Of a stretch of 64,000 nucleotides of DNA, positions 6,334-58,259 are shown piece after piece. Below the pieces are notes generated by a model that worked only from the letters and a program-made list of their open reading frames with translations, searched no databases and was not told the origin of the DNA. How positions within the stretch are numbered: position 1 is the stretch's first letter; each line of letters opens with the position of its first letter. The translations under genes and the position numbers were made by a program. The DNA is from Phyto melanocephala (taxonomy: Eukaryota > Arthropoda > Insecta > Diptera > Rhinophoridae): assembly GCA_941918925.1 (NCBI GenBank), contig OW799237.1:112324515-112388514 (forward strand), read 5' to 3'.

Positions 6334-7830
6334 TTAAAAAATCCAATTTTTTTTACCAATTTTTTTACAAATGTATTCTATATGTTCTTTGAAATTTAAG
6401 TGTTTATCTATTATTAAGCCTAAATATTTTATATTATTTACTTTCTCTATTGTTACATTATTTATCTTAAAATTTAAGTTATTTTCCATATTTATTTCCA
6501 TCAGTTTAGTCTTATTTTCATTTAATTTTAGTTTGTTCATCTTTAACCATTTATTGATGTTATCCATATCAATTTCTAGATTACTGTGACAAATCTCATC
6601 AGTCGCATCTTCTGTAAAAATCAGAGTATCATCAGCATAGAGTACTATTTCGCATTTTACCAATACTTTTTCCATATCATTTATATATATAATGAATAGT
6701 AGAGCTCCCAAGATTGATCCTTGAGGAACTCCATAATCATTTTCTACCATCGTTGATTTTATGTTGTTAACTTTTGTCATTTGTTTTCTATTAGTTAAGT
6801 AGGACTGAAACCATTGTAGTTCAATATCTTGAATACCATATTTATATAGCTTATTCAATAGAATGTCTCGATCAATTGTTTCAAATGCTTTTTTAAAATC
6901 AAGGAATATGACAGCTATTTTATTATCCTTCTTTATATTTTTCCATCTGTTTATAACATAGTTTATTGCAGTTTCACACGAATATTTTTTCCTGAAGCCT
7001 GATTGATATTTTGATAATTGTTTGTGTTTTTCCATGTATTCTCCAAGTTGGTTTTTTACTACCTTTTCAATAATTTTTTCACATGTTTTCAGGGTGTTAA
7101 TTGGTCGGTATTCTTCACAATTTAATGTATTCTTTACTTTTTCAACAGGTGTAATCATCGACTCCTTCCAATTGTTAGGAAATATTCCAGTTTCGAGTGA
7201 TTTGTTTATTATCTTAAGTAATTTCCATCCCAAAATAACCCAATTGTCTAATATCAATTTTGTATTTATTTTATTATAATCAGGTTTTTTCTTTATGTTC
7301 CTACATATATTCTTTAGTTCCTGTATATTTATTGCACGGAATTTAAATCTAAAATCTCCCACAGATATGTTGTCTTCATATTGCACATAATTTATTGAAT
7401 TCCTGATTTCTTTAATACTACTTATAAAATAACGGTTAAAATTCTCAGCTATTTGCAGCGTATCTTTATATTCAATTTGTCCAAATATCACAGATTTAAT
7501 TTCATTCTTTGGTTTCTTTAGTACTAGGTCCTTTATTTTACACCACATTTCCTTCTGGTTACTTGTATTAGAAATTTTATTATTTATATATCTATTTTTT
7601 TCATTTTCAACTTTTACTTTATATGTATTTCGTATTATTTTATAATCGTTCCATGCCTGGTCTGTATTCTCATTAATTGCTTGCTGGTATTTAAAAACTT
7701 TTTCTCTTTTCAAAATTCTGAGTTCATTATTATACCAGTTATTACGCCTTCCTTTAAGTTTCCTCTTGAAAATAAATTTACTTATTGCATCCTCAAAAAT
7801 TGTGTCAAAATTGTGGACATATAAATTCAA
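6334..7830 (-). pseudogene. LINE reverse transcriptase (broken ORF2)
   Basis: This 498-codon frame is the reverse transcriptase part of a LINE ORF2, which would copy element RNA at a nicked chromosomal target. Visible motifs in order are EEYRPIN (~239-245), SGFRKKYSCETA (~277-288), palm motif A with the first catalytic Asp in FLDFKKAF (~309-316), motif B GVPQGSILG (~367-375) and motif C YADD (~398-401). The upstream linker has a WYNNELR-like segment (~32-38), typical just after the endonuclease domain, but the endonuclease itself is absent. The frame ends early in the sequence ICKKIGKKNWIF and the protein resumes in another frame downstream. The catalytic residues are intact, but the copy as a whole is broken and not mobile by itself. 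Confidence 0.85.
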
Positions 7831-7870
7831 ATCATTTATTATATCATCTTGTAATACATATTAAATTCAT

Positions 7871-26200: not shown

Positions 26201-26316
26201 AAATTTGTCTTTAAACCGATATTACACATTTTATATTAATTTTTAAATTTGTGTGTTTTATTTTTTATTATAAATCAAACATCATGATGATTAACCCGAA
26301 AGTTTTTAAATAGAAT

Positions 26317-27088
26317 AAGTAAGAGTGCTATATTCGGCCGTGCCGAATCTTATATACCCTTCACAACGTGTAGTCATGCAATAACAGTAGTTTGTATCAC
26401 CATTCATCTCATATGCAATACGTAAATACATATATAAAAATATCCCATTGTAAAATTATAAATTTACGTAAGTATGTATGTATGCTAAAAAAAAAAACAA
26501 AATTAAAAAAAAAACAAAAAAAAATTTAAAAAAAAAATTTTAAAAAAATAATTAATAAAAATAATAAATATAAAACAAAAAAAAATAAAAAAAATTTAAA
26601 AAAAAAAAAGAATTTAAAAAAAAAAATAATAAAAATATAAATAATATATAAAATAAAAAAAATATAAAAAAAAAAAAAAAAATTTTGGCTCAGCTGGGAT
26701 TCGATTCCATGTTTACTCTAACCAGTATACATGTTTGTATGTATGTATGTTGTTCTTGTAATGTTGTTTTTGTGAAAAAAAAATCGAGGTGGTCGTGGTT
26801 TTTTGCTCATATCTCAGTTGTTTATGTACCGATGTTTCTGATTTTCAATACCGATCTACTCCCGAATTTTTGATATTTTAATACCTCACCCGGGTCCAGG
26901 CGATATCGGGGGGCTTCTAAAAGTTGATTTCAACATACACACGGACAGACGGACAGAGCTTAATCGACTCCCCTATTCATAAGCTTTCAGAAAATATATA
27001 CTTTATGGGGTCGGAAATGAAAATTGTAGAAAGTTCACACGGAATGACAAACCTATATATACCATTTTTCACTGTGTGAAGGGTATAA
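26317..27088 (+). mobile_element. Helentron-like element H2, full length
   Basis: Opens with AAGTAAGAGTGCTATATTCGG and the hairpin ATTCGGC-CGT-GCCGAAT, then 'atatacccttcacaacgtgt', an A-rich tract (26,490-26,690), GGACAGACGGACAG repeats, 'actttatggggtcggaaatg', and ends with ACCATTTTTCACTGTGTGAAGGGTATA. No terminal inverted repeats and no transposase: a non-autonomous member of what I take to be the DINE-1/Helentron group. Confidence 0.75.
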
Positions 27089-27656
27089 AAAAATTAGACA
27101 ATGCTAAAGAAATAATAAAAAAAAAATTGTTTTTATTAATAATTAATTATTGTAAAAATAATTCTTTTGACAACATTATTAACAGAGTTATGAGAATTTT
27201 CAAATAGTTTTGTAAAAATTAATATCTGATTAATTAAGAAAAGAAACTACCTAATAATATAACAGTCTTAGGGAAAGCTGTTTATAAAAACTATCATATC
27301 AACTTAAAAGTTAAAAGAAATACTAAAACAATAACTTTATATGGCGGAACTGTTAATTAATGAAATGAAAAAAAATAGGTCCTTTCTTAAAAAAAAAGAC
27401 CCTCAGTGATTGTTCAGCAGTTAGTTCTCTTCAGTACATAAGTACGTAGGAACCTTATTTCTTATCAACTAAAAATTTAAAGAAGCAATTAGGGCACCAA
27501 CCAACCAGGGACCGAATTACCTCCCTAGGCCCCAGGGCAATTTATTGGAAAAACAGAATTCTAAGAAAATTTTTTTTCTATTACTTTATTATTTTTTTTT
27601 CTTGAAAAATGTAAGACCATAAGACTTTCACATGCAGTAAATCTAACTTAAATACA
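27089..27656. other. Non-coding, nothing recognised
   Basis: AT-rich with no supported gene or repeat. Confidence 0.4.
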
Positions 27657-33833: not shown

Positions 33834-33921
33834 AAAAATCGACATGTAGAATTGTTTTTTAACTGTAAGATAAAAAACAAGTAACAGTGCTATATTCGGC
33901 CGTGCCGAATCTTATATACCC

Positions 33922-34126
33922 TGTTAGCAGAATAATAACAACACGATGTTTTATTAAACAGAAAAAATGTTTATTGAACAATTGAAAAATGTGAAGTGAA
34001 GTAAATTTATAAAAATTTTATATATACATATGTATGTAGAACAAATTATATATCAATGTATATATGATTAAATTTAACAAACACAGTTGAAAATATTTAA
34101 AGTGTAAATCGTATTTTTCTTTAACA
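33922..34126 (-). repeat. copia 3' LTR
   Basis: 205 bp, TGTTAGC..TTAACA on the plus strand. It appears identical to the other LTR. The polypurine tract lies immediately inside it. Confidence 0.95.
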
Positions 34127-34144
34127 CCCCCTTTCGATTAAACT

Positions 34145-37100
34145 TTAAATCAATCCAATCAATTCTCGAAAATATTTTATTTTTGTTGCTTGCAAAGGCT
34201 TAGTTAGTATATCAGCTTCCATTTCTTCTGTAGGACAGTATATAAAACTAAGAATATTTTTTTCTGTTAAGTCGCGCATGAAATTATATTTAGTTTCAAC
34301 ATGTTTTGTTCTTCTACTAAATTTCTCATTCTGAGTTAGTTTTAAACAGCTCTGATTGTCCTCATAGATTACTACTGGACTTATAATTTTAATTTCAAAA
34401 TCATTCAGTAATCGTCGTAACCAAATTGCTTCTTGAGATGCTTCACTTAAAGAAATATACTCTGCTTCTGTTGACGATAAAGACACACATTCTTGTTTTC
34501 TGCAACACCATGAAATACAAGATCCATTGTACTTAAAAAGAAAACCACTATTTGATTTACGATCAGTTTGGCACTGAGCCCAATCAGCATCAGCAAATCC
34601 ATATAAACCTTTACTATTGTTACAGGCAAGCTTAAATTTTAAATGTTTTGTTCCGCTTAAGTATTTGATTAAACGTTTAATTTCTTCCCAATCTCTATAC
34701 GTTGGTTTGCTTACTTTACGACTCAAAATTGAAACCGCTGTTGATATATCAGGACGCGTATTTATACTTAAATACAACAAACTTCCAATTAATTGATGAT
34801 ATTTCTCATTAGACGGCATAATAACACTTTCAGAATTATCCTTCAAATAACCAACATCCATTGGTATTTTAGAAAATTTTCCATTTACAACTCCTGCATT
34901 TTCAATAATTTTATTTATGTATTTTTCTTGACTAATGGTGAAATAACTATCAATTCCCCTTTCAATTTTTATTCCTAAATAAAAATTGATGTCTCCTGAA
35001 TCTGATATTTCAAAATTAGATTTTATAATTGTGTTTACAAATTCCTGCTGCTTCTCAGATTTCGTTGCAACAAGTATATCATCCACATAAATTAAAATAA
35101 ATAACCATTCACCATTTATGAAATATTTCAAAATACATGTATCAGCAAGTCCTTTTTGAAAACCAATATTAAGAAATACGTTTACTAGTTTTTCATTCCA
35201 ACATTTTGCAGATTGCTTAAGACCATATATACCTTTTTTTAACTTACAGCATTTGTTATTTTCTATTTCAAAACCTATAGGTTGTTTCATGTATATATCT
35301 TCATTCAAAATCCCATAGAGGAAAGCTGATTTGATGTCATATTGTTTTACAATCATTTGTTTTTCGCCAGCTAATCTCAAAAACATTCGAAATGTTGTTT
35401 GTCTTACTACTGGAGAAAAAACTTCATCGTAGTCTACACCAAACTTCTGACTGTAACCTTGTGCAACAAGTCTTGCTTTGTATTTTACCACATTATCATT
35501 TGCATCTGTTTTTATTTTAAATACCCATTTACATCCTATTGGTTTTCGACCTTCAGGAATATCGACCAAATCCCAAGTGTTATTTTGTTTTAACGAATTC
35601 AATTCATCTTTCATAGCATTTATCCATTGCTCTTTGTCTTTCCTGGTTAGAACCTCATTGAACGTTTTTGGTTCATTTACTTCTTTTGTTAATATTACTT
35701 GAAACCTTTCAGGTATTTTACCCTTTGTAGATCTGGTTGACCTTCTTAAATTTTGTGTAGTTTGATTAATATGTTTTTCTTCTAGAAGGGGTTTATTCAA
35801 AATTACATCTGATTCCAGTAAACTTGGCCTTTCATTCGATTCTGTATCAAAAAATTCATCTTCATAATTGTCATCATTATTTGCATTTTCATCATTATTT
35901 GCATTTTCATCATTATTTGCATTTTCATCATTATTTGCATTTTGTTGTAAAGGACTATGATTTTGATTATCTGAAACCGGTGTGTCATCATATGAAAATA
36001 AATTAATAAAAATATTATTGTTGTCTAAACTATTTTTATTCCGAACGCTTTCATGTAATATTTTATAATCGCGACTGATAGTAATTTTATTTGAGTTTTT
36101 GTCTAAGAAGCGCAATCCTTTTGATTCTTCAGAGTAACCAACGAAAATTAGATATTTTGCTTTTTCATCCAGCTTCTTTCTTTTATTTTTCGGAATATGT
36201 ACCAGCGATAAGGATCCAAAAATCTCAAAATTTAGCCATTGTGAATACTTGCCTTCCCAAACATCAATTGGTTTCTTATGTTTTGATTTTGTCATTAAAT
36301 GATTTTGAATAAAAGCTGCCGTAGTCACAGCCTCACCCCAATAACATTTTTCCAGATTTGCATCTAATAACATGCAACGCACCATTTCAACAAGATATCT
36401 GTTACGTCGTTCTGCTACTCCATTTTGCTCAGGTGTATAAGGAGTGGTAAATTGTTGTTTTATACCCTTACTTTTACAGAAATCTGCAAATTTCAACCCT
36501 ATGTATTCACCTCCTCGATCTGATCTTATTATTTTGGGGTATTTGCCAAACTTAGTAAAAACCATCTCAGAAAATTCTTTCATTTTATTAAAAACTTCAG
36601 ATTTGTGGGCAATTAAATATATTTTTATATACTTACTAAAGTCGTCAATAAAAGTAACAAAAAAACGTTTGCCACTTGGAGTTTGAATATCCATTGGTCC
36701 GCATACATCACTATGAATGAGATCCAATACACCATTAGACTGTTGGTTTGTAGATTTCGGAAAAACTTTTCTACACAATTTTCCTCGTACACAAATTTCA
36801 CATATATCATCACAGCTGCAATTATCGACATTCTTGACATTCTTTAACATTTGTTTTACTACATCAATTTCTCGATGGCCAAAAATACGATGCCAGTAAT
36901 GAACACATCTCTTTACTATCATTGCATGTTGTTTCATTGGTTCACTAGCTGTAGCTTTTATTTTATATAATCCTTTTGTCATCACTGCCGTAGCCAAAAT
37001 TTCATTATTTTTCAAAATTTCGCATACATTATCATAAAAAATTACTTTCAAACCTTTTTCAGTTAACTTTTTAACCGATAACAAATTGCTTTCAATACTT

Positions 37101-38116
37101 GGTACGTAAAGAACTTCTTTTACCAATATCGTTTGATTCAACCCTCTACCATTTAGAATATTTACTTCACAAATGCCTTTTCCATATGCCTTTAATTCAT
37201 ATCCATTTGCTACAGTAATCATGGTTACAACTTTTTCATCCAAAGTTTTGAAGTATTTTTTCGTATTGCAAATATGACTAGTAGCACCGGAATCAACATA
37301 CCAATAATTTTCTTTGCTTTCATCACTAATACAAAAACATATTTCTTCTGCATTGTTTGTAGAACTTTCAGCAACAATATTTGTTTTATTTTTCTTTTTT
37401 AAAAAATTTTGATATTCTTGGCAGTTTTTACGAATATGGCCCGTTTTTTGACAAAAATAACATACTAAATTATTAAAAACGTTAACTTTTCTTTCAGAAT
37501 AAACTTTTACTTTCAGAGCTGAATCTTCAACATATTTCTTTTGGTTTCTTCTCTTCGATTCTTCAATTAATTTTTCTTTTACAACTTTTAACGACGGCAC
37601 ACCATTACTGCTTGCTTCTAGCGTTGTCACTAAAACGTCATAAGATTCTGGTAAACTTCTAAGTATAATTGCGACTTCCCATTTTTCACTCAAAACTTCA
37701 CCCATACTTGAAAGTTTCTTTAATTCAATTTGAATATCGTTTAAATGGCGCTCCATATCACCATACTCATCGAGCTGCATTTTGCATAAATTTTTCATTA
37801 TAAAGATGCATTCACTAAAAGAAAAAGTTACAAATTGTTGTTTTAATAGCTGCCATGCTTCTTTTGCTGACGTAGCTTCATCGATTATGTAAAATAGGTC
37901 ATCATCTATCATCAAAAAAATTGAGGCTCTAGCTGATTCATCTTTTCGAATCCATTGTAAGTCTCGCTGCTGAGGTATTTCATCTCTTACTACACACCAG
38001 GTATCTTCTCTTATTAAAACACACTCAGCCTTACGTTTCCAAACAAAATAGTTATCACGGTTTAGTTTCTCAAAAGATGATTTAAAATCTTGAGTCATCT
38101 TTCTTTCTGGGCCCAT
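34145..38116 (-). CDS. copia Gag-Pol polyprotein
   Basis: A 1,323-aa single frame. Gag lies at ~1-235 (UBN2-type capsid region) with zinc knuckle C-x2-C-x4-H-x4-C at 219-232. Aspartic protease active site DSGATS is at 275-280. Integrase zinc-binding H409/H414/C439/C442 is followed by the catalytic core with D~469, D533 (SDRGGEY) and E569, so DD35E. A short acidic linker has three-and-a-bit copies of ANNDEN (~727-748). Reverse transcriptase spans ~848-1060 with YVDD at 1010-1013, then RNase H (DADWAQ, SSTEAEY, YEDNQS). Order Gag-PR-IN-RT-RH is that of Ty1/copia elements. No internal stops or frameshifts. The first ATG (38,116) is only 4 nt inside the LTR, within the primer binding site; the next in frame is six codons on (38,098). 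Several short frames on the opposite strand are shadows. Confidence 0.95.
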   Translation of the reverse strand: MGPERKMTQDFKSSFEKLNRDNYFVWKRKAECVLIREDTWCVVRDEIPQQRDLQWIRKDESARASIFLMIDDDLFYIIDEATSAKEAWQLLKQQFVTFSFSECIFIMKNLCKMQLDEYGDMERHLNDIQIELKKLSSMGEVLSEKWEVAIILRSLPESYDVLVTTLEASSNGVPSLKVVKEKLIEESKRRNQKKYVEDSALKVKVYSERKVNVFNNLVCYFCQKTGHIRKNCQEYQNFLKKKNKTNIVAESSTNNAEEICFCISDESKENYWYVDSGATSHICNTKKYFKTLDEKVVTMITVANGYELKAYGKGICEVNILNGRGLNQTILVKEVLYVPSIESNLLSVKKLTEKGLKVIFYDNVCEILKNNEILATAVMTKGLYKIKATASEPMKQHAMIVKRCVHYWHRIFGHREIDVVKQMLKNVKNVDNCSCDDICEICVRGKLCRKVFPKSTNQQSNGVLDLIHSDVCGPMDIQTPSGKRFFVTFIDDFSKYIKIYLIAHKSEVFNKMKEFSEMVFTKFGKYPKIIRSDRGGEYIGLKFADFCKSKGIKQQFTTPYTPEQNGVAERRNRYLVEMVRCMLLDANLEKCYWGEAVTTAAFIQNHLMTKSKHKKPIDVWEGKYSQWLNFEIFGSLSLVHIPKNKRKKLDEKAKYLIFVGYSEESKGLRFLDKNSNKITISRDYKILHESVRNKNSLDNNNIFINLFSYDDTPVSDNQNHSPLQQNANNDENANNDENANNDENANNDDNYEDEFFDTESNERPSLLESDVILNKPLLEEKHINQTTQNLRRSTRSTKGKIPERFQVILTKEVNEPKTFNEVLTRKDKEQWINAMKDELNSLKQNNTWDLVDIPEGRKPIGCKWVFKIKTDANDNVVKYKARLVAQGYSQKFGVDYDEVFSPVVRQTTFRMFLRLAGEKQMIVKQYDIKSAFLYGILNEDIYMKQPIGFEIENNKCCKLKKGIYGLKQSAKCWNEKLVNVFLNIGFQKGLADTCILKYFINGEWLFILIYVDDILVATKSEKQQEFVNTIIKSNFEISDSGDINFYLGIKIERGIDSYFTISQEKYINKIIENAGVVNGKFSKIPMDVGYLKDNSESVIMPSNEKYHQLIGSLLYLSINTRPDISTAVSILSRKVSKPTYRDWEEIKRLIKYLSGTKHLKFKLACNNSKGLYGFADADWAQCQTDRKSNSGFLFKYNGSCISWCCRKQECVSLSSTEAEYISLSEASQEAIWLRRLLNDFEIKIISPVVIYEDNQSCLKLTQNEKFSRRTKHVETKYNFMRDLTEKNILSFIYCPTEEMEADILTKPLQATKIKYFRELIGLI

Positions 38117-38120
38117 AACC
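38107..38120 (-). promoter_or_regulatory. copia primer binding site
   Basis: GGTTATGGGCCCAG directly abuts the 5' LTR on the element's strand and complements the internal CTGGGCCCATAACC of initiator tRNA-Met. The polyprotein's first ATG lies inside it. Confidence 0.85.
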
Positions 38121-38325
38121 TGTTAGCAGAATAATAACAACACGATGTTTTATTAAACAGAAAAAATGTTTATTGAACAATTGAAAAATGTGAAGTGAAG
38201 TAAATTTATAAAAATTTTATATATACATATGTATGTAGAACAAATTATATATCAATGTATATATGATTAAATTTAACAAACACAGTTGAAAATATTTAAA
38301 GTGTAAATCGTATTTTTCTTTAACA
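38121..38325 (-). repeat. copia 5' LTR (promoter-bearing)
   Basis: 205 bp, same sequence as the partner LTR. It should hold the element's promoter and polyadenylation signals. Followed on the outside by the TACCC target duplicate. Confidence 0.95.
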
Positions 38326-39070
38326 TACCCTTCACAACGTGTAGTCATGCAATAACAATTGTTTGTATCACCATTCATCCTATATAAAATACGTGCATAC
38401 GTACACGTTAGAATAAATGTGGCATCGAATCCCAGCTGATCAAAAAAAATTTTATTTTATTTTATTTAATATATTATTTATATTTTATTATTTTTTTTAA
38501 ATTTTTTCAAAAATTTTTTTAGAAAAATTTTTAAAAAATTTTTTTAAATTTTTTTTTAAATTTTTTTAAAATTTTTTTTTTGTAGTTTTTTTTTATTATT
38601 TTTTTCTTATTTTTAATATTTTTTTTTTTTGTAATTTTTTTTGTTTGGTATGTTTTTTACATGTATCTATGTATGTATGTTGTTGTTGTAATTGTGAAAA
38701 AAAACGAGGTGGTCGTGGTTTTTTGCTCATATCTCAGAAAGTTATGGGGCGATTGTGCTGAATTTCAATAGCGATTCATTCCTGGATATTTCCAAGAGAT
38801 TGATACCATATACAGATCTGAGGAACATATAGTTGCTTCTAAAAGTTGATTTCAACCAACACACGGACAGACGGGCAGACGGATAGACGGACAGACGGTC
38901 AGGGCTTAATCGACTCCTCTATTCATAAGCTTTCAGAAAATATATACTTTATGGGGTCGGAAATGAAAATTGTAGAAATTACAAACGGAATGACAAAGCT
39001 ATATATACCCTTGTACACCATAGGTGAAGGGTATAAAAATCAATTTTAACAGTTTTTTTTAAATTGGGCT

Positions 39071-49173: not shown

Positions 49174-49966
49174 AAGTAAGAGCGCTATATTCGGCCGTGC
49201 CGAATCTTATATACCCTTCACAACGTGTAGTCATGCAATAACAGTGGTTTGTGTCACCATTCATCCCATATGAAATACGTACATACATATAAAAACATAC
49301 ATATATAAAAACGTCCCATTGTAAAATTAAAAATTCACGTATGTATGTTAAAAAAACAAAAAAAAAAAAAATTTTTTAAAATTTAAAAAAAAATTTAAAA
49401 AAAAACATTAAAAAAAATTATTATGTATATAATATATATAAAACAAAAAAAAATAAAAAAAAAATAATAAAAATAAAATAATAAAAAATAATAATAAAAA
49501 TATAAATAATATATTAAATAAAAAATAAAAAAAAAAATTAAAAAAAAAATAAAATAAATTAAAAAAAAAATTAAAAAAAATTTTTTTTTGGCTCTGGGAT
49601 TCGATGTCACGTTTTCTCTAACCAGTATACACGTTTGTATGTTTTGTTATGTATGGGTTTTTGCTCATATCTCAGTTGTTTATGTACCGATGTTTCTGAT
49701 TTTCAATACCGATCTACTCCCGAATATTTCTGATATTTTAATACTTTACCCGGGTCCAACCTATGTCGGGGGGCTTCAAAAAGTTGATTTCAACATACAC
49801 ACGGACAGACGGTCAGACGGACAGGCTGACAGAGCTTAATCGACTCCCCTATTCATAAGCTTTCAGAAAATATATACTTTATGGGGTCGGAAATGAAAAT
49901 TGTAGAAATTTCACACGGAATGACAAACCTATATATACCCTTTTTCACTGTGTGAAGGGTATAATA
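49174..49966 (+). mobile_element. Helentron-like element H7, full length
   Basis: Begins AAGTAAGAGCGCTATATTCGG and ends TTTTTCACTGTGTGAAGGGTATA. It has an A-rich tract (49,350-49,590), ACGGACAGACGG repeats and 'tatggggtcggaaatg'. Its sequence groups it with H1, H2 and H8. Confidence 0.75.
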
Positions 49967-51392: not shown

Positions 51393-51701
51393 ATATGCAC
51401 ATATTTATGAAGTTTTTACATAAATACATAATTCCACCATGTATTTAACAATGTTTACATAATGAAAAGTTAGCCAGTGTACCAAAAAATTTTTAAATTA
51501 TTCATTTCAATTTTCTCTGGAATAAAAAATAAAAAAATTCTGAAAATTTTGAAAAAAAATGATAAGAAATTTTTAACAGTGCTTATGTTTAAAGGCATAA
51601 ATAAGCTCCTGTGTGTTCAAATTAAAAAATGTTCTGCAAATTATTAAAATAACTATTTTTATTTTTCTTTCCTATGTAATTATAATCGGATACTTCGTTT
51701 T

Positions 51702-52524
51702 TATACCCTTCACACAGTGAAAAAGGGTATATATAGGTTTGTCATTCCGTGTGAAATTTCTACAATTTTCATTTCCGACCCCATAAAGTATATATTTTCT
51801 GAAAGCTTATGAATAGGGGAGTCGATTAAGCGCTGTCAGTCTGTCCGTCTGACCGTCTGTCCGTGTGTATGTTGAAATCAACTTTTTGAAGCCCCCCGAC
51901 ATCGCTTGGACTCGGGTGAGGTATTAAAATATCAGAAATATTCGGGAGTAGATCGCTATTGAAAATCAGAAACATCGGTACATAAACAACTGAGATATGA
52001 GCAAAAACCCACGACCACCTCGATTTTTTTTTCACAAAAGCAACATTACAACAACAACATACATACATACAAACGTGTATACTGGTTAGAGAAAACGTGG
52101 CATCAAATCCCAGCTGAGCCAAAAAAAATTTTTTTTTAATTTTTTTAAAATTTTTTTTTTTATTTTTTTTTTTATTTTTTTTTTTTTTATTTTTTATTTA
52201 ATATATTATTTATATTTTTATTATTTTTTTTTTAATTTTTTTTTTATTTTTTTTTTGTTTTATATATATTATATACATAATAAATTTTTAAAAAATTTTT
52301 TTTTTAAATTTTTTTTTTAAAATTTTTTTTTTTTTTGTTTTTTTTTAACATTCATACGTGAATTTATAATTTTACAATGGGACGTTTTTATATATGTATG
52401 TTTTTATATTTATGTACGTATTTCATATGGGATGAATGGTGACACAAACCACTGTTATTGCATGAATTCACGTTGTGAAGGGTATATAAGATTCGGCACG
52501 GCCGAATATAGCGCTCTTACTTGT
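51702..52524 (-). mobile_element. Helentron-like element H8, full length, reverse orientation
   Basis: Reading on the minus strand it opens CAAGTAAGAGCGCTATATTCGG, then hairpin, T/A-rich tract (52,125-52,350), GGACAGACGG repeats and 'tatggggtcggaaatgaaaa'. It ends ACCCTTTTTCACTGTGTGAAGGGTATAA. Its opening end stops 22 bp from the kappaB-like site of the peptide gene downstream. Confidence 0.75.
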
Positions 52525-52546
52525 TGATACTATTAACCTTTACTTA

Positions 52547-52556
52547 AGGAATCCCC
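52547..52556 (-). promoter_or_regulatory. Relish-type kappaB site
   Basis: The minus strand reads GGGGATTCCT, a full match to the IMD/Relish-preferred form GGGGATTYYT known in flies. It lies about 160 bp upstream of the expected transcription start of the peptide gene at 52,776. A 10-bp match can arise by chance. Confidence 0.5.
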
Positions 52557-52627
52557 TTTTAAATGTATAGGTATAATTCTTATAAATCTTAACGTACTAG
52601 GTACATATGTATGTAGAATATATTTTT

Positions 52628-52635
52628 CTTATCAG
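52628..52635 (-). promoter_or_regulatory. GATA site upstream of the peptide gene
   Basis: The minus strand reads CTGATAAG, a match to WGATAR, in the same orientation as the kappaB site 72 bp away. Linked kappaB and GATA sites are a known layout in fat-body immune genes of Drosophila. Confidence 0.4.
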
Positions 52636-52679
52636 TTTTCATTTTTATTATGGTACTTCACCGAAAGTTGTTGCGTAGG

Positions 52680-52718
52680 TATATAAAACAAAATTTCAGT
52701 TAATATTAAGACACAGTT
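52680..52718 (+). promoter_or_regulatory. TATA box and Initiator of the peptide gene
   Basis: TATATAAAA at 52,680-52,688, then an Initiator-like ACAGTT with its A at 52,715, ~33 nt after the TATAAAA start. A TCAGTT at 52,696-52,701 fits the Inr consensus better but is too close to the TATA. The leader would be ~60 nt. Confidence 0.5.
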
Positions 52719-52775: not shown

Positions 52776-52967
52776 ATGAAATTTGGTGCTTTTATTGGGT
52801 TGCTTGTGTCTTTAATTGCCTTTATTGGTAGCATTACTATAACAACTGCTTCTCGTGATGCTCGTCCAGTGCAGCCAAGATTTAATCCCCCACCACCAAA
52901 ACGTGAACGTCCAATAATCTATGATGCTCCTATTAGAAGACCTGGATTTAAAACTATGTATGCTTAG
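52776..52967 (+). CDS. Secreted Pro/Arg-rich peptide, candidate antimicrobial peptide
   Basis: A single 63-codon exon. Residues 1-~26 are a textbook signal peptide (MKFGAFIGLLVSLIAFIGS.. with a TTAS end). The remaining ~37 residues are proline-rich (9 Pro, with a PPPP run) and basic (7 Arg and 2 Lys against 3 acidic), with the segment ERPIIYDAPIRRPGF. No Cys. Size, charge and composition fit short insect proline-rich antimicrobial peptides (drosocin, metchnikowin or lebocin types), which act on bacteria or fungi after secretion into haemolymph. I cannot assign it to any one of these. A TATA promoter plus upstream kappaB and GATA sites supports an immune role. AATAAA at 53,308 and 53,356 could end the transcript. 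Alternatives are a neuropeptide or another small secreted peptide. Confidence 0.65.
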   Translation: MKFGAFIGLLVSLIAFIGSITITTASRDARPVQPRFNPPPPKRERPIIYDAPIRRPGFKTMYA

Positions 52968-53307: not shown

Positions 53308-53361
53308 AATAAAAATTTTGTACATGTGAAAATAATTATTTGGGTGGTTTTTTTCAATAAA
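53308..53361 (+). terminator. Polyadenylation signals of the peptide gene
   Basis: AATAAA occurs at 53,308-53,313 and 53,356-53,361, ~340-390 nt after the stop codon. No closer canonical signal was noticed. Confidence 0.4.
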
Positions 53362-53567: not shown

Positions 53568-53816
53568 TCAATCAGATCTCTTCCACTCTAGCGGCTCATC
53601 TCGTTTAATTGACCGACAGAATGTTGAACATTTGTCACTGCCACAAGTTTCACACGGATACCAACAACCCGGACACATCGCGTTAGGACAGTCGCAGGGA
53701 TCTTTTTCTTCCTGTTTTTTACTTGCCATCCATTCGTGACCATCCTCGAGTTCTTTGCTACTTTTACCCGATGACCGTCCTCTGCGTTTTATGTCTTTCT
53801 TTTTTGAAGGATTCAT
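53568..53816 (-). CDS. ARL14EP-like (ARF7EP_C) small Cys-rich protein
   Basis: 82 aa in a single exon. The N-terminal 40 residues are basic and low complexity (KKKDIKRRGRSSGKSSKELE). The C-terminal half carries eight Cys at 41, 43, 48, 51, 55, 58, 63 and 67 in the pattern C-x-C-x4-C-x2-C-x3-C-x2-C-x4-C-x3-C, with CPGCWYPCETCGS. This is the arrangement of the ARF7 effector protein C-terminal domain (ARL14EP family), a likely zinc-binding fold. In vertebrates ARL14EP links ARL14 to myosin; the fly role is not known to me. It lies on the same strand as Orc4 and convergent with the peptide gene. Confidence 0.75.
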   Translation of the reverse strand: MNPSKKKDIKRRGRSSGKSSKELEDGHEWMASKKQEEKDPCDCPNAMCPGCWYPCETCGSDKCSTFCRSIKRDEPLEWKRSD

Positions 53817-54678: not shown

Positions 54679-56119
54679 CTAAATTAATGAACTTTGTGAC
54701 CACTGGTGTACTTCTGTAGGAAGAGCCTGATAACGTTGTACGGCCTGGTTGATTTGCGTATAGGTTAGAGCCAGCTTATGCATTTCAAACTCTTTTTGTA
54801 CTTTGCAGCTTGTTGATGCCAGCGGTAAGAGCAGCTCCACATTGCGTAAATGTTCGAAAGCTTTCAGAACAACCGCTCTTTCTATGCCCTGCATTGTTGA
54901 AGAAACTTTGGCAAATTTGGAAAACCTTGAAAATATTATTTCGAAATTAAAAGGATCTCTATCATAAATTTCCGAGTGATGTTTTATGGCTATAATTAAG
55001 CATAGTTCCAGAACAGATAACCCACATAAAAGTTCAATTTTATCGTCGGATTCGTAAGAGGCTGTAAGCTGAGCTATTTGATCCGGAGTTATTTGCGATT
55101 CTATATTTGCATCTGGTTGTATTTGAGCCACTAGGCGAAAAATGAAAGTTTTAAGAAGAGATTCACTAACATCAAAGTCAAATAGGGCCTGTAGTGACTT
55201 GTTAACTGCAGAATTTTTAAGCAAATTTTGTATATGTTTATTCCAATATTCGGTAATTTTTTTGTTAAATTTATATTTAGCAGGATTAAAATGATTACGA
55301 TGGAAGGTTAGCTCTTGGGAATTTAAATTTTTTAGACTGGCTACTCTTTCAGCATGTTCTTTAAGTTCTTTATCACTGGGTATGGTTAAGAGACCTGCAA
55401 AAAGAGAGACATATTCCGCAAAGTTTTCAGCATTTGGAAATATAAAAACTTGACGATGGGAAAAACGGGATTTAACTCTTTTCTCTAATAATTCTATAAC
55501 ATCCAGGCGACAAGTTACGCCCAAAATACAAATTGGCGCCTGAGCACTTTGCGAGACATCGAAAAGATTATAGAGCAACGTTTGATTGTGATGCGAACAA
55601 AACAAATCAAATTCTTCGAGTATAAAAACAACACTTTTGGACTTTTTGTTGCCCGCCTTAAGGCAGGCCAATAAAAAGGCCAAATTTTCTGAAAAGGAAC
55701 CAAACACTTTGCCATCGGTAGCATTTTCTAGTTGCATTTGTACAGTAGCCGATTTTAAAGCCAATCTGTCGTCGGTGTGGAGATTACCATCTAAGTGAAC
55801 GATTAAGGTATTGGTAATAAAGTCTTTATTTTTCATTAAATCAGCTAAAATGGCGTTAATAAGCTGTAATTTTTTATATAAACGTTATCAAAATAATTTT
55901 AACAAATAAATTGATAAATTTTTTTACCGTGGTTTTTCCTGAACCTCGAGGTCCTATTAAAAGTAGCGAATTTGACTCTCCCATTTCCGCTGTGCGTTTC
56001 AATAGTTGCTTAACATTTTCTCGCTCGTTTTCATGTCCCCGAAATGTGATAAAATCTCTTTGCAGACGTTCTTTTAGAAATTTACGTATTTTTAACAATT
56101 CTTCGCTATAATCAGGCAT
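54679..56119 (-). CDS. Orc4: Origin recognition complex subunit 4
   Basis: Two exons, 55,928-56,119 and 54,679-55,863, with a 64-nt intron (GTAAAA..TTACAG, phase 0), giving ~458 aa, close to the length of the Drosophila protein. ORC4 is an AAA+ subunit of the six-part complex that marks replication origins and loads MCM helicase in the nucleus. The Walker A GPRGSGKT is at 56-63, just before the exon junction, and the Walker B-like FILEEFD at ~144-150. IVHLDGNLHTDDRLALKS and QNLRFTL-like spacing follow the family, and CRLDVIELLEKRVKSRFSHR is the sensor/arginine-finger region. The C-terminal winged-helix part ends ..TEVHQWSQSSLI. The ATG at 56,119 is the family start. The second in-frame Met (55,836) lies inside exon 2 and would lose Walker A. 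The intact frame suggests a functional gene. Confidence 0.93.
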
Positions 56120-56864: not shown

Positions 56865-56936
56865 GGGGATGTAGCTCAGTGGTAGAGCGCTCGCTTTGCA
56901 TGTGAGAGGCCCCGGGTTCGATCCCCGGCATCTCCA
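56865..56936 (+). tRNA. tRNA-Ala (anticodon TGC), copy 1
   Basis: A 72-nt cloverleaf: acceptor GGGGATG paired with CATCTCC plus discriminator A, D arm GCTC..GAGC, anticodon stem CTCGC/GTGAG around TTTGCAT (anticodon TGC at loop positions 34-36), T arm CCGGG/CCCGG with loop TTCGATC. A T run (TTTTT) a few bases downstream suits RNA polymerase III termination. No intron and no encoded CCA. Confidence 0.95.
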
Positions 56937-58187: not shown

Positions 58188-58259
58188 GGGGATGTAGCTC
58201 AGTGGTAGAGCGCTCGCTTTGCATGTGAGAGGCCCCGGGTTCAATCCCCGGCATCTCCA
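58188..58259 (+). tRNA. tRNA-Ala (anticodon TGC), copy 2
   Basis: Identical to the gene at 56,865 except that the T loop reads TTCAATC instead of TTCGATC, still within the normal pattern. Same strand, 1,323 bp apart. The flanks differ, so only the gene body is shared. A T run follows within 20 nt. Confidence 0.95.

What the first reader, a model, noticed from the sequence alone, without database searches (positions are those of the whole stretch)
52776..52967. Unassigned Pro/Arg-rich secreted peptide gene resembling an antimicrobial peptide
A signal peptide followed by a ~37-residue, Cys-free, +6-charged, 24% proline peptide with ERPIIYDAPIRRPGF. I do not recognise it as any named family, so it may be a lineage-specific immune peptide.
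Basis: partly seen in the sequence, partly recalled or inferred. Interest (0 to 1): 0.75.

Follow-up and report, generated by a model that had tools for sequence, protein, structure and literature searches.

The report
Blowfly version of immune peptide Paillotin
The stretch is a real small gene for a secreted fly immune peptide, but it is not new: it is the blowfly form of a peptide already known as Paillotin (IM18) in Drosophila and domesticin in house and blow flies.

Summary
52776-52967 (+) is an intact 63-codon, single-exon ORF with a hydrophobic leader and a Cys-free, +6, Pro/Arg-rich tail, with one convincing place in its 740-Mb genome. Words from its mature part occur in one held paper, which prints the Calliphora vicina 'domesticin-like peptide' of immune maggots. 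The two mature peptides differ at one of 38 residues (P to F); the printed sequence has the reported mass, 4442.2 Da. A profile of close relatives recovers a Musca 'antibacterial peptide' and drosophilid 'immune-induced peptide 18' (IM18), now named Paillotin. In Drosophila it is Imd/Relish-induced, secreted into haemolymph, and needed mainly against Providencia burhodogranariea. How it acts is unsettled: Musca domesticin was reported active in vitro, Drosophila Paillotin was not. Across 21 sequences the C-terminal ~20 residues are highly conserved, while the N-terminal half is proline-rich in the calyptrate-like set and mostly glycine-rich in drosophilids. Verdict: a new member of a known family; low interest.

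The parts
52776..52967 (+). Paillotin/IM18/domesticin-family precursor gene (CDS with stop), 63 aa, single exon
52776..52850 (+). signal peptide region, residues 1-25; residues 24-25 (TA, 52845-52850) fit the XA dipeptidyl-peptidase motif described for Paillotin
   Evidence: hydropathy; published C. vicina mature N-terminus SRDARP; XA/XP motif. The exact cleavage is inferred; direct signal-peptidase cleavage before Ser26 is not excluded
52851..52964 (+). mature peptide, 38 residues, SRDARPVQ...KTMYA, +6, 23.7% Pro, calculated average mass 4492.18 Da
52908..52964 (+). conserved C-terminal module RPIIYDAPIRRPGFKTMYA; the Phe before KTMYA is unique among 21 aligned sequences
52547..52556 (-). candidate NF-kappaB (Relish) site GGGGATTCCT in the non-repeat stretch upstream; inferred, not shown
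   Evidence: 0 of 9 other AMP loci share it, and it does not fit the GGRDNNHHBS consensus used in the Paillotin paper
52629..52634 (-). GATA-type site TGATAA; weak, 70 such matches in the window
52682..52688 (+). candidate TATA box TATAAAA; start site inferred by eye about 31 bases on, near 52713-52715
   Evidence: sequence only; 484 TATAWAW matches in the window
53308..53361 (+). two AATAAA polyadenylation signals, at 53308 and 53356

Best explanation
The ORF is a blowfly orthologue of Paillotin (IM18, CG33706), called domesticin in Musca and domesticin-like peptide in Calliphora vicina. Most likely course: bacterial peptidoglycan triggers the Imd pathway (general knowledge, recalled); Relish switches on the gene (shown in Drosophila, inferred here); a 63-residue precursor is secreted, the signal peptide and perhaps a TA dipeptide are removed, and a 38-residue linear cationic peptide accumulates in the haemolymph (shown for Drosophila and reported for C. 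vicina, inferred here). There it adds to the killing of some bacteria together with other immune peptides. I think that the conserved C-terminal module engages a specific bacterial target and that the Pro/Arg-rich N-terminal half helps uptake or adds direct activity; this last step is inference with no direct test.
For: Shown here: intact ORF, one convincing place in the genome; 37 of 38 mature residues identical to the C. vicina peptide printed in PMC5344439, whose sequence gives 4442.12 Da against the reported 4442.2; the profile recovers the Musca antibacterial peptide (E 7.5e-23) and nine drosophilid proteins, five of them named IM18 (E 5.8e-12 to 8.0e-4); alignment to a drosophilid IM18 is reached by 0 of 1000 shuffles. 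From papers: C. vicina fractions holding the peptide's mass (25-26) are scored active on E. coli, not S. aureus, biofilm; domesticin is up-regulated in infected Musca larvae, with MICs of 0.1 to 50 uM on 11 bacterial strains; Drosophila Paillotin induction is lost in Relish mutants and mutants are susceptible to P. burhodogranariea; the IM18 protein rises in haemolymph of infected flies.
Against: No expression data from this species. Drosophila Paillotin at 100 uM had no in vitro activity on P. burhodogranariea, alone or with cecropin A, and failed on E. coli and Ecc15, against the Musca MICs. The C. vicina activity belongs to HPLC fractions, is weak (64-66% of inactive fractions), and the paper both lists fraction 26 as active and says that fractions 22-27 showed no evidential activity on E. 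coli biofilm. The promoter evidence is thin: the Paillotin paper's Relish consensus matches only twice in the 500 bases upstream, both inside a repeat; I had seen the GGGGATTCCT site by eye before scanning nine motifs, and 0 of 9 other AMP loci of this genome carry it within 1000 bases upstream of the match. Nothing here shows a target of the C-terminal module.
Confidence: 0.88

Rival explanations
1. It works as a classical short insect proline-rich AMP (drosocin/apidaecin/oncocin type) that enters bacteria and stops the ribosome or DnaK.
For: 24% Pro, +6, no Cys. The C. vicina authors describe the species' proline/arginine-rich peptides as acting on intracellular targets.
Against: Against 10 listed PrAMPs, alignment scores are near those of shuffled sequences (14 to 884 of 1000 shuffles reach them; best Lser-PRP1, 14 of 1000), while a drosophilid IM18 is reached by 0 of 1000. 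Seven of the ten drosophilid-like members have a Pro-poor N-terminal half.
Confidence: 0.2
2. It is a host defence peptide without direct killing: it works by potentiating other peptides or by neutralising a bacterial factor.
For: No in vitro activity of Drosophila Paillotin alone or with cecropin A; its loss adds to reduced Drosocin, Diptericins and Attacins.
Against: Musca domesticin MICs down to 0.1-0.2 uM; weak activity of the C. vicina fractions.
Confidence: 0.35
3. Pseudogene or chance ORF.
For: Loss-of-function alleles segregate in wild Drosophila; the Phe before KTMYA is unusual.
Against: Full-length conserved frame and 37 of 38 mature residues as in C. vicina.
Confidence: 0.03

Closest known systems
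Calliphora vicina domesticin-like peptide (PMC5344439, Table 6)
   Same: 37 of 38 mature residues; the published N-terminus at SRDARP fits the predicted cleavage
   Different: P to F at one residue before KTMYA, so +50 Da; the genome here is probably not C. vicina, since the printed P-rich 3, cecropin and defensin 1 match at best at 78%, 90% and 95%
Musca domestica domesticin (GenBank KF514664 per PMC4138075; P0010, a Musca 'Antibacterial peptide', is probably this peptide, the accession was not checked)
   Same: whole-length homologue, Pro-rich N-terminal half, IYDTPIRRPGGQKTMYA end
   Different: 52-56% identical; two residues longer
Drosophila Paillotin / IM18 / CG33706 (PMC12419901)
   Same: precursor plan and C-terminal module in drosophilid IM18s; XA/XP dipeptide before SRD/SRH
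   Different: N-terminal half on average 23% Gly and 11% Pro in ten drosophilid-like sequences, against 0% Gly and 34% Pro in eleven calyptrate-like ones; in D. melanogaster annotated as sharing a transcript with CG10332
Lucilia sericata Lser-PRP1 to 4 and C. vicina P-rich 1-4
   Same: Pro-rich, immune-linked blowfly peptides
   Different: no clear sequence likeness to the four Lser-PRPs (14 to 375 of 1000 shuffles reach the score); the C. vicina P-rich homologue is a separate gene at G000:C5:8288718

Membership tests
Paillotin/IM18/domesticin | sequence homology over the precursor, strongest in the C-terminal domain | tested here: met
Paillotin/IM18/domesticin | signal peptide followed by an XA/XP dipeptide and a mature peptide | tested here: met
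   hydrophobic leader, TA then SRD; 'XA/XP'; cleavage itself not observed
Paillotin/IM18/domesticin | positive net charge | tested here: met
   +6; +3.89 in D. melanogaster
Paillotin/IM18/domesticin | Relish-type sites within about 200 bp of the start site | tested here: inconclusive
   one GGGGATTCCT; none by the GGRDNNHHBS consensus in the non-repeat stretch
Paillotin/IM18/domesticin | induction by infection through Imd; presence in haemolymph | not testable with these tools
   shown in D. melanogaster and reported for the C. vicina peptide, not for this genome
short insect PrAMPs (drosocin, apidaecin, oncocin types) | sequence similarity beyond composition | tested here: not met
   10 peptides tested, 14 to 884 of 1000 shuffles reach the score; the best (Lser-PRP1, 14 of 1000) is not notable among ten tests
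short insect PrAMPs (drosocin, apidaecin, oncocin types) | ribosome or DnaK as target | not testable with these tools
   needs binding and translation assays

The most novel reading that the evidence does not exclude
The family is a two-module peptide: a highly conserved C-terminal module (RP-x-IYDAPIRRPG..TMYA) that recognises one conserved target, and an exchangeable N-terminal half. In calyptrate flies that half became Pro/Arg-rich, which turned a helper peptide without killing power of its own (Drosophila) into a directly bactericidal one (Musca, Calliphora). This would explain the opposite in vitro results in print.
Probability: 0.2. Interest if true: 0.45.

Novelty: new member of a known kind. 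Interest (0 to 1): 0.17.

Why it matters
It removes a false novelty and gives the gene its name. It also joins two literatures: the held text of the Drosophila Paillotin paper has no occurrence of 'domesticin' or 'Musca', though the Musca paper had already noted the IM18 link. Setting the calyptrate forms beside Paillotin gives a direct test of why one set of authors sees killing and the other does not.

Tried and rejected
Pfam (E up to 1) and solved structures (E up to 10): no match for the peptide. Lser-PRP1-4 as the family: sequences do not match. An alignment search of the own genome is not accepted for this genome; I then searched it with the single Musca protein P0010. The earlier report of the C. 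vicina peptide that PMC5344439 cites (Yakovlev et al. 2016, seen only in a reference list) is not held. GGGGATTCCT in papers: 22 papers hold it, 15 listed, none of these by title about fly immunity; my recollection that it occurs in diptericin promoters stays unverified. Paper search for CG10332, CG33706 and CG2917 (12 papers, 10 listed): nothing on gene order in the listing, so conserved gene order with Drosophila was not tested. Promoter comparison with 9 other AMP loci (4 cecropin, 3 of 5 defensin matches, 1 P-rich, 1 diptericin): 0 of 9 have the site at up to 1 mismatch, and 2 of 9 have GGGRNNYYYY against 29% of random 1000-base stretches of the window, so it does not support the site; the cecropin and diptericin matches begin inside the query, so their 'upstream' may hold intron. 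No structure was predicted: a 38-residue Pro-rich linear peptide would give little.

Full report
Observation. The window encodes an intact 63-aa ORF at 52776-52967 on the + strand. The mature part, taken from Arg27, has 37 residues, 24.3% Pro, +6, no Cys; taken from Ser26 it has 38 residues and 23.7% Pro. It has one place in the 739.75-Mb, 9-contig genome at E <= 0.001; with the Musca relative as query the same place comes first (6.8e-15), and the only other is at E 0.57.

Identity. A full-text search for four short words of the mature part found one paper of 5.39 million: PMC5344439, of which I saw the outline and abstract, passages, the section on composition and the first part of the reference list. 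Its Table 6 prints the Calliphora vicina 'domesticin-like peptide', 38 residues, marked both as found in the mRNA data and as sequenced peptide (the latter citing an earlier paper that is not held). It differs from the window at one residue, P in place of F before KTMYA. The mass calculated from the printed sequence is 4442.12 Da and the mass reported is 4442.2; the window form would weigh 4492.18. A phmmer search gave 6 relatives, one of them named, an uncharacterised protein of Lucilia cuprina. A profile of these with the window gave 20 (the same 6 and 14 more): a Musca domestica 'Antibacterial peptide' (7.5e-23), nine named drosophilid proteins of which five carry the name immune-induced peptide 18 (5.8e-12 to 8.0e-4), and nine without a name from any source. 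IM18 has been renamed Paillotin (PMC12419901: outline, abstract, passages, the first of two parts of the results, the discussion and the in vitro section seen). The Musca paper (PMC4138075, passages only) already noted that domesticin resembles IM18.

Species. The genome is a blowfly or near kin. It is probably not C. vicina: printed C. vicina peptides match at best at 78% (P-rich 3), 83% (diptericin 2, in part), 90% (cecropin, in part) and 95% (defensin 1), and the assembly is 739.75 Mb against 706.5 Mb for C. vicina and 708 Mb for C. vomitoria in the abstracts listed. I could not name it.

Family anatomy. In the alignment of 21 sequences (window and P0001-P0020, none dropped) 10 columns are invariant and 7 nearly so; 12 of these 17 lie in the last 19 residues of the window peptide. 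The residue before KTMYA is Pro in 18 of the 20 relatives, Ser in P0004 and Gln in P0010; Phe is found in the window alone. The half before this stretch differs: 11 calyptrate-like sequences (the window, L. cuprina, Musca and 8 unnamed) have on average 34% Pro and 0% Gly, and 10 drosophilid-like ones (9 named, 1 unnamed) have 11% Pro and 23% Gly. The split is not clean: 3 of these 10 (P0016, P0018, P0020) hold 23-32% Pro as well as Gly. The groups were drawn by names and by likeness, not by a tree.

Regulation. An 828-base stretch, 51698-52525, is a repeat with many copies in the window and near other fetched loci. The gene's own promoter is therefore likely confined to about 52526-52713. It holds GGGGATTCCT on the minus strand at 52547-52556 (the only match in the window; with one mismatch allowed, shuffles give 1.01 on average; 7e-5 exact matches expected in 500 bases, both strands, by composition), a TGATAA and a TATAAAA. 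Against it: I had seen the site by eye before scanning nine motifs, the Relish consensus of the Paillotin paper has no match in that stretch, and 0 of 9 other AMP loci in this genome share the site. I count this as a hint.

Mechanism. In D. melanogaster Paillotin is induced by E. coli and M. luteus, and the induction is abolished in Relish mutants; three mutant alleles raise susceptibility to P. burhodogranariea, and overexpression rescues. The IM18 protein behaves alike in a haemolymph proteome (PMC12005426, passages). No killing of P. burhodogranariea was seen at 100 uM, alone or with cecropin A, and growth of Ecc15 and E. coli was not inhibited. Musca domesticin was reported with MICs from 0.1-0.2 uM (M. 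luteus) to 25-50 uM (S. typhimurium) and none on Neurospora. C. vicina fractions 25-26 reduced E. coli biofilm cell viability to 64-66% of inactive fractions, with no effect on S. aureus, and the paper's text is not uniform on whether this counts as activity. [quoted passage not shown] they are not of this family. The most likely working is thus an Imd-induced secreted helper peptide with some direct activity in calyptrates; the last part is inference.

Other PrAMPs. Against ten insect proline-rich peptides (sequences from passages of PMC11678341) the window's mature peptide scores about as shuffled sequences do (the best, Lser-PRP1, is reached by 14 of 1000 shuffles), while a drosophilid IM18 is reached by 0 of 1000. 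It is Pro-rich in make-up but, by sequence, a member of the IM18 family.

Verdict. Observation confirmed; immune peptide supported; 'unassigned, lineage-specific' refuted. A new member of a known family, of low interest. What remains worth testing is the disagreement on direct killing and the change of the N-terminal half.

Noticed in passing
window 51698-52525: An 828-base repeat lies directly upstream and ends 21 bases before the candidate kappaB site; it has many copies in the window (e.g. 26314-27091, 86%; 49654-49964, 97% over a part) and near other AMP loci of this genome.
   Followed up: partly
window 34145-38122 (-): An open 1325-aa copia-type polyprotein frame (RVT_2, copia gag, rve) flanked by 218-base direct repeats, 33916-34133 and 38115-38332, 99% alike: a young LTR retrotransposon by its looks.
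   Followed up: partly
window 6334-7860 (-): A 508-aa frame with a reverse transcriptase domain RVT_1, probably of a non-LTR element.
   Followed up: no
window 54679-56119 (-): ORC4 (origin recognition complex subunit 4): the frame at 54679-55836 matches ORC4_C; the 81-aa frame at 55874-56119 looks like its N-terminal exon, by eye.
   Followed up: partly
window 53568-53816 (-): 82-aa ARF7EP_C (ARF7/ARL14 effector-like) Cys-rich protein frame, convergent with the peptide gene.
   Followed up: no
window 56865-56936 and 58188-58259 (+): Two nearly identical tRNA-Ala (TGC) genes.
   Followed up: no
G000:C1:162486580-162507986, L007-L010: Cluster of at least four cecropin-like matches, each starting at residue 11 of the printed peptide, probably at an exon border.
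   Followed up: no
window 52947-52949 (residue 58): Phe before KTMYA, where the 20 relatives have Pro (18), Ser (1) or Gln (1); whether fixed or a variant is unknown.
   Followed up: no
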